Assembly: GCF_001647715.1 (NCBI RefSeq)
Contig: NZ_CP015600.1
Location: forward strand, 1,116,001 to 1,180,000
Source: Pseudomonas antarctica
GTDB taxonomy: Bacteria; Pseudomonadota; Gammaproteobacteria; Pseudomonadales; Pseudomonadaceae
Direction of reading: 5' to 3'
DNA length: 64,000 nt
In this document: positions 38,557-40,076 of the stretch, one piece after another
Position numbering within the stretch: the first letter of the stretch is position 1
Layout of the letters: the number at the start of each line of letters is the position of its first letter
Program-made: the position numbers and the translations under genes
Notes under the pieces: model-generated
Databases searched by the model: none
Seen by the model: the letters and a program-made list of their open reading frames with translations, nothing else
Told to the model about the DNA's origin: nothing

Positions 38557-40076
38557 AGGGATTCCTCGCCGTCTTCTTCTTGCAGGGCGTGCAGTTGCAG
38601 CGTGCTCTGGGCCAGGGTGCCGCGCGTGGCCAGCTCCTGTTGCACCAGGCGTTGGCCTTCGGCGCGTTGCTCTGGCGTCAGTGGGGCTTCGAGCTGCGTG
38701 GCCAAGTCGTTGGCCTCTGGCGTGTCCTGGGCTTTAGCCAACTGGCTGAAGACGTAGGCGTTCAATGGGTTGGGCTGGGTGCCCTTGCCTTGGGAAAACA
38801 ATTGGGCGATGGCGAAGTCGGCGCTGTTCTGGCCATTGCGCGCAGCGGTCAGCAAGTGGTCGAGGGCTTTTTGCGAGTAAACCTTGCCCAGGTAGCCACG
38901 GCGGTAGATCTGGCCGAGGTAGTAATCGGCGGCGACTTCCTTGCCCACGGCTTTTTCGAAGTGCGCTTCGGCGGCCTTGGCGTCCGCCGGCACCCACTTG
39001 CCTTCGTAGTAGAGCTTGCCCAGCAACAGTTCGGCGCGCGGCTGGTCGGCGGCGCGACCGTTGTCCAGGTACTTCATCATCTGGTCGACATCGCCCAGTT
39101 CGGGGAAGTCGTAGAGCAGTTGCGCCAGGCTGACCCAGGAGGCGGGGTAGCCGGGGGCGATTTTTTCCAGCAGGGCCTGGGCGGTTTTTTCGTCAGGCTT
39201 GCCGAGGGTCGCGTCGCCCAATACACGTGCAACGCTGTCGACGCGCTGGGCAGTGACGGTGCCACGGCTGTAAGCGGCTTCCATCTGCTTGAGGAGTTCG
39301 GCCTGTTTTTCCGGTTCGGCTCTTTTCTGGTAGACCGTGGCCAACTCGACGTAGCAGATGTCGGTGGTGTTCAACGCGGCCTTGCAGATGCGCTCCACAT
39401 CATCCAGATGCTGGTCGTAGGTGTCCTGGGTGCGATACAGCAGCACCTGGGCCAAACCTGCTTCCGGGTAACCCGCCGCCTGCCACTTGCTGATCTGTTG
39501 CTGGGCATTCACGTTGGGGAAGCTGTGCGGGTATTGCAGGTAGAGCATCGCCAGCGGGATCAGGGTGTTGCCTTCGCCATTGGCAAAGGCTTTTTTCAGC
39601 AGCCCTTCGGCTTCGTGCTGCTCGGCCTCGGTGGCGCCCGGCTTGGCCACCAGCAGGCGACCCAGGCGGGCCTGGGCTCGCGGCGAGGTATCGGCGGCGG
39701 CGCGGTAGGTGGCCTCGGCCTGGCGGATTTGCTCGGGGTCGCGGGTGGTCACCTGGATATCCGCCAGGCCGACTTGGGCCTCGCTGTAACCCAGGTTTGC
39801 CAGCTGCTGATAATTCTGTTGGGCGGTGACCGTGTCGCCACGTTTGAGGGCTTCGTTGGCCAGGCGCTGGTCGGGCAGGCCGGCGCAACCGGCGAGGCTG
39901 ACCGCCAGTGCCAATGTGCAGAATGCAGAGGCGAAGTGCGACCCGCTCTGTGTGGGAGCTGGCTTGCCTGCGATGCGGGCAACTCGATCTTTCAGGTGCA
40001 CCGAGTCGATCCCATCGCGGGCAAGCCCGGCTCCCACAGTGCTCTGTGTTGTGCTTGAAATAGGGTTCACAGGCAT
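38553..40076 (-). CDS. algK: Alginate scaffold lipoprotein AlgK, with an in-frame REPIN insertion near the N terminus
   Basis: A 507-residue outer-membrane lipoprotein with Sel1-like TPR repeats that positions AlgE and AlgX for export. From residue ~65 it matches AlgK (AGLPDQRLANEALKRGDT). The lipobox is LAGC with cysteine at residue 64, far deeper than the usual ~20-32. Residues 13-44 are encoded by a REPIN (39951-40038) plus a 9-nt direct repeat; removing the 96-nt duplication-plus-insert restores a normal 32-residue lipoprotein signal in the same frame. ATG 40076 has GAGGGC just upstream, 8 nt after the alg44 stop. An internal GTG at 40001 (residue 26) could shorten the extension. The gene is otherwise intact; export efficiency is uncertain. 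Confidence 0.9.
   Translation of the reverse strand: MPVNPISSTTQSTVGAGLARDGIDSVHLKDRVARIAGKPAPTQSGSHFASAFCTLALAVSLAGCAGLPDQRLANEALKRGDTVTAQQNYQQLANLGYSEAQVGLADIQVTTRDPEQIRQAEATYRAAADTSPRAQARLGRLLVAKPGATEAEQHEAEGLLKKAFANGEGNTLIPLAMLYLQYPHSFPNVNAQQQISKWQAAGYPEAGLAQVLLYRTQDTYDQHLDDVERICKAALNTTDICYVELATVYQKRAEPEKQAELLKQMEAAYSRGTVTAQRVDSVARVLGDATLGKPDEKTAQALLEKIAPGYPASWVSLAQLLYDFPELGDVDQMMKYLDNGRAADQPRAELLLGKLYYEGKWVPADAKAAEAHFEKAVGKEVAADYYLGQIYRRGYLGKVYSQKALDHLLTAARNGQNSADFAIAQLFSQGKGTQPNPLNAYVFSQLAKAQDTPEANDLATQLEAPLTPEQRAEGQRLVQQELATRGTLAQSTLQLHALQEEDGEESL
39951..40038. repeat. REPIN inserted within the algK coding sequence
   Basis: An 88-bp inverted REP pair, TGTGGGAGCTGGCTTGCC at the left and GGGCAAGCCCGGCTCCCACA at the right, inside the algK frame. 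The flanks repeat GCTCTGTGT: left copy 39945-39953, right copy 40041-40049, exactly 96 bp (32 codons) apart. Confidence 0.93.

What the first reader, a model, noticed from the sequence alone, without database searches (positions are those of the whole stretch)
39945..40076. REPIN inserted in frame into algK, between start codon and lipoprotein signal core
The algK frame contains a complete 88-bp REPIN flanked by a 9-nt direct repeat (GCTCTGTGT at 39945-39953 and 40041-40049). Insert plus one repeat copy is exactly 96 nt, 32 codons, with no stop. Deleting it in silico leaves a normal 32-residue lipoprotein signal ending LAGC. As read, the signal core sits behind a ~53-residue REP-encoded extension, unless translation restarts at GTG 40001. 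This looks like a recent REPIN transposition caught with its target duplication, tolerated inside an essential export gene, or one that damages alginate export. REPINs are normally extragenic.
Basis: partly seen in the sequence, partly recalled or inferred. Interest (0 to 1): 0.82.

Follow-up and report, generated by a model that had tools for sequence, protein, structure and literature searches.

The report
Translated REPIN in alginate lipoprotein signal
A small mobile DNA palindrome that normally sits between genes is apparently translated, in frame, inside the throw-away signal peptide of the alginate-export protein AlgK, at the same place in many Pseudomonas species, so it is an old and repeatedly renewed feature rather than a fresh insertion.

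Summary
The REPIN is real and lies in frame between the algK start and its lipobox. It is not a recent hop. Of 208 distinct alg44-algK junctions from Pseudomonas genomes (a sample biased toward relatives), 165 carry a REP head and tail there: several REP types, both orientations, sometimes nested. All 194 long start-to-Cys distances, in 19 lengths, are multiples of 3. All 171 long distinct alleles are stop-free in the algK frame, against 0 and 54 in the other frames. Exact REP heads are read in all three frames (129/35/6), so openness is kept, not one peptide. A REPIN-bearing control junction (arcC, 24 loci) is unconstrained (3/10/11 modulo 3; 3 of 24 open).

The 9-nt repeat is not a target duplication: its second copy occurs in 2 of 29 comparable alleles, the window and its nearest sister.

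Translation probably starts at GTG 40068-40070. The REP peptide should be discarded with the signal peptide. Best reading: a disposable signal n-region that tolerates and repeatedly receives REPINs, purged of frame-breaking alleles. A domesticated hairpin is not excluded. In-frame palindromic elements are known elsewhere, so this is a new variant of a known kind. Expression was not tested.

The parts
   Evidence: mature part matches solved AlgK chain 3e4b_A from query residue 65 on
40068..40070 (-). probable real start codon GTG (third codon of ATGCCTGTG)
   Evidence: GAGG ends 8 nt upstream of this GTG in 185 of 209 loci, only 2 nt upstream of the ATG; ATG replaced by TTG in 5 and lost in 2 of 187 correctly parsed loci (9 further loci of the script's GTG class are short alleles that it misparsed)
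40078..40082 (-). Shine-Dalgarno-like GAGGG
   Evidence: sequence, spacing count
39951..40038 (-). REPIN, 88 bp, translated in frame as ...TVGAGLARDGIDSVHLKDRVARIAGKPAPT...
40014..40037 (-). REP arm nearest the start codon (GTGGGAGCCGGGCTTGCCCGCGAT in algK sense)
   Evidence: sequence
39952..39974 (+). REP arm nearest the lipobox (GTGGGAGCTGGCTTGCCTGCGAT, read antisense in algK)
   Evidence: sequence
39945..39953 (+). copy of GCTCTGTGT on the lipobox side; shared with 10 of 29 alleles of this REP type
40041..40049 (+). copy of GCTCTGTGT on the start-codon side; in 2 of 29 alleles only; not a target duplication
39885..39887 (-). lipobox cysteine codon (LAGC), first residue of mature AlgK
   Evidence: sequence
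40085..41251 (-). alg44, upstream gene, whose stop lies just before the algK start
   Evidence: used as anchor

Best explanation
The n-region of the AlgK lipoprotein signal peptide is a disposable stretch of coding sequence that tolerates REPINs. Translation starts just after alg44, at GTG 40068-40070, runs through the REPIN, and makes a signal of about 60 residues. The hydrophobic core and the LAGC lipobox act as usual, and signal peptidase II should cut off the whole REP-encoded part, so mature AlgK is unchanged. REP elements have arrived, been replaced, nested, shortened and lost here repeatedly. Selection only removes alleles that break the algK frame or bring a stop. Shown: conserved position, frame and openness, many REP types, frame-free use of the REP. 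Inferred: translation itself, cleavage of the extension, neutrality of the peptide, and the mobile route (RAYT transposition or recombination between REPs).
For: Frame: 233 of 233 scorable loci are multiples of 3 from start to Cys (28 lengths); the test bears mainly on the 194 long ones, 194 of 194, 19 lengths. Openness: 171 of 171 long distinct alleles stop-free in frame 0, 0 of 171 in +1, 54 of 171 in +2. No single peptide: exact heads GTRGGAGC fall in all three frames, 129/35/6. Turnover: heads-out, tails-out and nested arrangements; in-frame shortened or lost forms L047, L250; P. protegens-type L059/L062/L068 are 63 nt longer than L061/L063. Fast evolution: in 70 pairs chosen on flanking genes (nucleotide difference under 10 %), REP arms differ by 10.9 %, the loop by 24.3 %, the rest of the signal region by 20.2 %. 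Control: at the arcC junction, 24 REPIN-bearing loci are 3/10/11 modulo 3 and 3 of 24 open. Start: Shine-Dalgarno spacing. Public AlgK entries of about 500 aa carry the REP peptide (6 of 8 sequences viewed).
Against: No proteomic or expression data. Six or so species pairs have a nearly identical 5' segment although their flanking genes differ at pS 0.14-0.26 (L102/L105, L120/L124, L044/L098, L211/L214, L015/L017, L159/L166), which simple drift does not predict. REP arms stay as self-complementary as in intergenic copies (0.888 against 0.874), which a decaying passenger need not do. Near-absence of REPINs elsewhere in the same 427 kb is not explained by tolerance alone. The control distance (upstream stop to arcC start) is a looser proxy than start-to-Cys.
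Confidence: 0.68

Rival explanations
1. Domesticated element: the REPIN hairpin (DNA or mRNA) just after the start codon is kept because it tunes algK translation, mRNA processing or the balance of the alginate export complex, and in-frame REPINs are therefore favoured, not only tolerated.
For: Wide persistence (165 of 208 distinct junctions); arms co-vary across alleles, with 102 of 153 alleles having at most 2 mismatches of 22 between left and right REP; arm self-match as high as in intergenic copies; several species pairs with a nearly unchanged segment despite diverged genes; in pairs picked on similar segments the REPIN has pS 0.047 against 0.188 in the rest of the signal and 0.275 in mature algK (biased by the choice of pairs).
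Against: Lineages without any REPIN exist and keep algK (32 of 208 with no motif), including one that lies beside REPIN carriers in the tree (L250); partial loss in L047; mixed left/right subtypes; folding energy per base is not stronger than in intergenic copies (-0.669 against -0.715).
Confidence: 0.2
2. Untranslated leader: AlgK really starts downstream of the REPIN (for example GTG 40001 or an ATG at the REPIN edge), and the open frame is a gene-caller artefact, as usually assumed for REPs in 5' ends of ORFs.
For: Di Nocera et al. 2013 (PMC3733652, section 15 read) argue this for most REPs in 5' ends of P. putida and other ORFs; other REPIN copies of this genome do give false extensions in front of apparent real starts (L223 arcC, L225).
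Against: An untranslated leader would not keep length modulo 3 (194 of 194 long alleles) nor a stop-free frame (171 of 171); the arcC control behaves as this rival predicts and algK does not; Shine-Dalgarno spacing fits the upstream GTG.
Confidence: 0.06
3. Recent single transposition with a 9-nt target duplication.
For: The two 9-nt copies are really there.
Against: Shared by many species; the second copy is present only in the window and its nearest sister among 29 alleles of this REP type; 23 host-genome REPINs show no flanking repeats above control (mean 2.04 against 2.30). IS200/IS605-type Y1 transposases are not expected to make target duplications (recalled).
Confidence: 0.02

Closest known systems
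REPIN / REP doublets of Pseudomonas (Bertels and Rainey 2011, PMC3116915, passages seen)
   Same: Two inverted REPs in an about 88 bp unit, tens of copies in the genome, predicted hairpin
   Different: Those are extragenic (in SBW25 only 14 of 1,067 16-mers overlap genes, passage); here it lies inside a coding sequence, at the same place in many species
Intragenic GTAG/CGTC REPs (Di Nocera et al. 2013, PMC3733652, abstract, section 15 and other passages seen)
   Same: REPs and REP dimers inside ORFs; recB of two Xanthomonas species carries different REPs at about the same site
   Different: There 5'-terminal REPs are mostly judged non-coding. algK does not appear in the section and passages I saw; the supplementary gene list could not be read. 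Here frame conservation over many species supports coding
Rickettsia palindromic elements (RPE) in genes (passages of PMC10969869, and PMC3733652)
   Same: Palindromic mobile element translated in frame inside host genes
   Different: RPEs hit many unrelated genes with a conserved encoded peptide; here one gene site is hit by several REP types read in all three frames, in a signal peptide
AlgK of P. fluorescens and P. putida (PDB 3e4b, 7ula; PMC9734138, passages seen)
   Same: Same mature TPR lipoprotein
   Different: The solved chains match from residue 64/65 of this ORF on, so they say nothing about the extended signal

Membership tests
REPIN | Two inverted REP sequences separated by a short spacer, about 88 bp | tested here: met
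REPIN | Dispersed in many copies in the genome | tested here: met
   78 and 75 matches
REPIN | Extragenic location | tested here: not met
   Inside the algK frame. This is a usual property, not a structural criterion; I therefore call it an intragenic REPIN
REPIN | Cognate RAYT (Y1 transposase) in the genome | tested here: inconclusive
   5 Y1_Tnp matches over cut-off, one with an internal TGA; not sorted into RAYT and IS200/IS605, and no pairing with this REP type tested
MITE with target duplication | Direct repeat made on insertion | tested here: not met
Rickettsia palindromic element-like behaviour | In-frame, stop-free translation inside a host gene | tested here: met
   as inference from sequence; translation itself not observed
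Rickettsia palindromic element family | RPE sequence and conserved encoded peptide | tested here: not met
   REP heads of Pseudomonas type, read in three frames
Lipoprotein signal peptide (SPII) | n-region, hydrophobic core, lipobox ending in Cys | tested here: met
   LAGC lipobox and core by sequence; mean net charge of the n-part +3.1 in 171 long alleles, +1.2 in 34 short ones. No signal-peptide predictor was available
Lipoprotein signal peptide (SPII) | Lipidation and cleavage of the long form | not testable with these tools
   needs protein chemistry

The most novel reading that the evidence does not exclude
algK carries a domesticated, self-renewing REPIN: a mobile palindrome kept for its hairpin inside the first codons of an exopolysaccharide-export gene, re-supplied from the genomic REPIN pool whenever it decays, with selection fixing only in-frame versions, so that a mobile-element family supplies both a regulatory RNA/DNA structure and an ever-changing signal-peptide leader.
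Probability: 0.2. Interest if true: 0.82.

Novelty: new variant of a known kind. Interest (0 to 1): 0.6.

Why it matters
REP elements are by name and practice extragenic, and 5' REP extensions of ORFs are commonly discounted as mis-called starts. Here comparison of 194 long alleles shows the opposite for one gene: the reading frame has been guarded through a mobile palindrome while REP types, orientations and frames changed. That gives a natural experiment on how signal-peptide n-regions absorb mobile DNA, a simple frame-conservation test for other suspected intragenic REPs, and a concrete locus at which to ask whether REPINs are passengers or useful to their hosts.

Tried and rejected
Target duplication: rejected. 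Untranslated leader: made unlikely by frame and stop statistics and by the arcC control; one search was a first pass that missed 8 of 30 loci lying on the other strand, one search scored 30 of 30.

Selection on the peptide: dN/dS on 49 close pairs gave 0.61 (REPIN), 0.23 (rest of signal), 0.05 (mature), but the pairs were picked on similar segments; one search repeated the comparison on 70 pairs chosen on flanking genes (3 further pairs dropped for lack of a recognisable REP pair), and there the segment turns over quickly. I do not lean.

Recent gene conversion from the genome's own pool: in one genome (G188) the algK REPIN is at best 88 % like another copy and 72-76 % like other full-length copies, so no recent copying there; only this genome was tested so, beside the window's own (89 %).

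Tree: FastTree on about 750 nt of alg44 and algK, 213 rows; 109 parsimony changes of length against a shuffled mean of 148. The tree is too weak to count independent insertions, so I rest on numbers of distinct lengths and arrangements.

Other intragenic copies: of the 29 other closest copies in the genome 16 lie in no ORF of 120 codons or more and 13 do; two of the 13 (L223, L225) have a recognisable real start downstream by eye; the rest were not identified, because both Pfam scans failed on coordinates. So I do not claim that algK is the only intragenic REPIN in this genome.

Rows dropped before counts: L060 (an N in the segment), L275 (340-nt segment not parsed), L262, L271, L273, L274 (no start found by the script), L277 (no lipobox).

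Literature: searches, 53 of an open-access library brought up no paper on a REPIN in algK; only listings, abstracts, passages and one section were seen, and supplements could not be read.

Full report
What is there. On the minus strand the algK ORF (38553-40076) follows alg44 and holds, between its first codons and the lipobox, an 88-bp REPIN (39951-40038) without a stop. The element has 78 and 75 matches in the host genome, the best other copy 87-89 % identical. The mature protein is AlgK: the solved chain 3e4b_A matches from residue 65 of the ORF on.

Relatives. I gathered 80 named algK loci (the best 80 of 233), 30 loci from a search of 298 genomes of the genus (280 had a match), 100 more places from its list and 29 usable more distant ones (29 of 30 genomes had a match). 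The sample leans toward relatives of the window. From 239 loci, after dropping L060 and L275, there are 208 distinct stretches from the alg44 stop to the lipobox Cys. By an 8-nt motif with one mismatch allowed, 165 of 208 hold at least one REP head and one tail; 32 hold no motif, 5 a lone tail and 6 heads only. Among the 204 with a recognised start, 164 of 171 long alleles and 1 of 33 short ones have head and tail. Among named relatives it is 62 of 79; among the distant set 3 of 29. So the feature belongs to the P. fluorescens complex and some other lineages and is absent from many distant Pseudomonas.

Kinds. The common form has heads outward, as in the window; tails-outward forms occur in P. 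protegens-like loci (L059, L062, L068, L202) and in L255, L265, L266; nested forms carry a second REPIN inside the first, such as L013, L014, L022, L023, L030, L050 with a third REP type, and L064, L069, L072, L194. Small in-frame inserts inside the REPIN and in-frame shortenings also occur (L041, L134, L153, L204, L047). L250 looks like an in-frame loss: it lies beside REPIN carriers in the tree and keeps their flanks.

Frame. From start to Cys 233 of 233 scorable loci are multiples of three, 28 lengths. Short alleles are ordinary signals, so the force of the test lies in the long ones: 194 of 194, 19 lengths. If reading did not pass through, one in three would be expected; even the 18 length changes needed at the least would give (1/3)^18. 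All 171 long distinct alleles are stop-free in frame 0, 0 in frame +1, 54 in frame +2. Exact heads are read in three frames, 129/35/6, giving LWERACSR, VGAGLARD or RRSELARE. The peptide is thus free to vary; the frame is not.

Control. The arcC gene of the same genome has a REPIN just upstream. In 30 loci of relatives 24 have a REPIN in that junction; the distance from the upstream stop to the arcC start is 3/10/11 modulo 3, and the arcC frame stays open back to the upstream stop in 3 of 24. This is what an untranslated REPIN looks like. The measure is not identical to the algK one, and the upstream gene was taken by ORF length, not by homology.

Start codon. GAGG ends 8 nt before the GTG that is the third codon of ATGCCTGTG in 185 of 209 loci; the ATG itself is only 2 nt from it. 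In 187 correctly parsed loci the ATG position reads ATG 180, TTG 5, CTG 2 times. The GTG (40068-40070) is therefore the likely start. Several public AlgK entries also begin there (P0001, P0002, P0036).

The repeat. Of 29 alleles of the window's REP type 10 have ACACAGAGC on the lipobox side and 2, the window and its nearest sister, on the start side too. The neighbours have similar but different letters there (for instance L053, L009), so the second copy arose by substitution. For 23 other REPINs of this genome the flanks share no direct repeat beyond a re-paired control (2.04 against 2.30 letters).

Context. In the 80 named loci, 427,484 bp with alg44, algK, algE and the start of algG, a strict heads-outward pattern is found 52 times, each time at the algK 5' end. 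The host genome has five Y1 transposase matches, not sorted further.

Passenger or part? For tolerance: fast turnover of the whole segment (arms 10.9 %, loop 24.3 %, rest 20.2 % different in 70 pairs chosen on flanking genes), lineages without it, frame-free peptides, folding energy no stronger than that of intergenic copies. For a function: arms as self-complementary as in intergenic copies (0.888 against 0.874), 102 of 153 alleles with at most 2 of 22 mismatches between the arms, persistence, and some species pairs with nearly identical segments despite diverged genes (pS 0.14-0.26). I put tolerance first and keep domestication at one in five.

What is known. Intragenic REPs have been listed by Di Nocera et al. 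2013, who discount most 5' ones as non-coding (PMC3733652, section 15); Rickettsia palindromic elements are the classical in-frame case (passages); REPINs of SBW25 are mostly extragenic (passage). My searches brought up no report of REPINs in algK, in an open-access library only.

Limits. All is comparative sequence; no protein was seen. REP counts use a fuzzy motif and can include chance hits. Loci from the named and the unnamed collections overlap in species; identical segments were merged, near-identical ones were not.

Noticed in passing
L041, L123, L153, L196; L134, L154, L160, L165, L182: Short in-frame inserts (about 12-18 nt, of two kinds, one like GTCGGATCGCCGCACC and one like GGTCGAGCGCGACCCCGG) at recurrent spots inside the algK REPIN; may be mini-elements of their own.
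   Followed up: no
L102/L105, L120/L124, L044/L098, L211/L214, L015/L017, L159/L166: Species pairs whose algK 5' segment is nearly identical although the flanking alg44 and algK parts differ at pS 0.14-0.26: local exchange or constraint on nucleotides.
   Followed up: partly
L223, L225 and relatives L283-L312: REPIN copies in front of arcC and of a HAD-like gene open false N-terminal extensions; arcC junctions of relatives hold REPINs of unconstrained length.
   Followed up: yes
L060 (NZ_NMOJ01000084.1): An N stands in the algK junction where relatives have the REPIN, so assembly gaps may hide further cases.
   Followed up: no
host genome G000:C1:3557172-3557912: A cluster of six REPIN matches in tandem, evenly spaced by about 130 bases.
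   Followed up: no
window 29182-29277: Second REPIN of the same family in this window, 86-88 % identical.
   Followed up: no
host genome G000:C1:228615-234536: Three Y1 transposase matches within 6 kb, one with an internal TGA.
   Followed up: no
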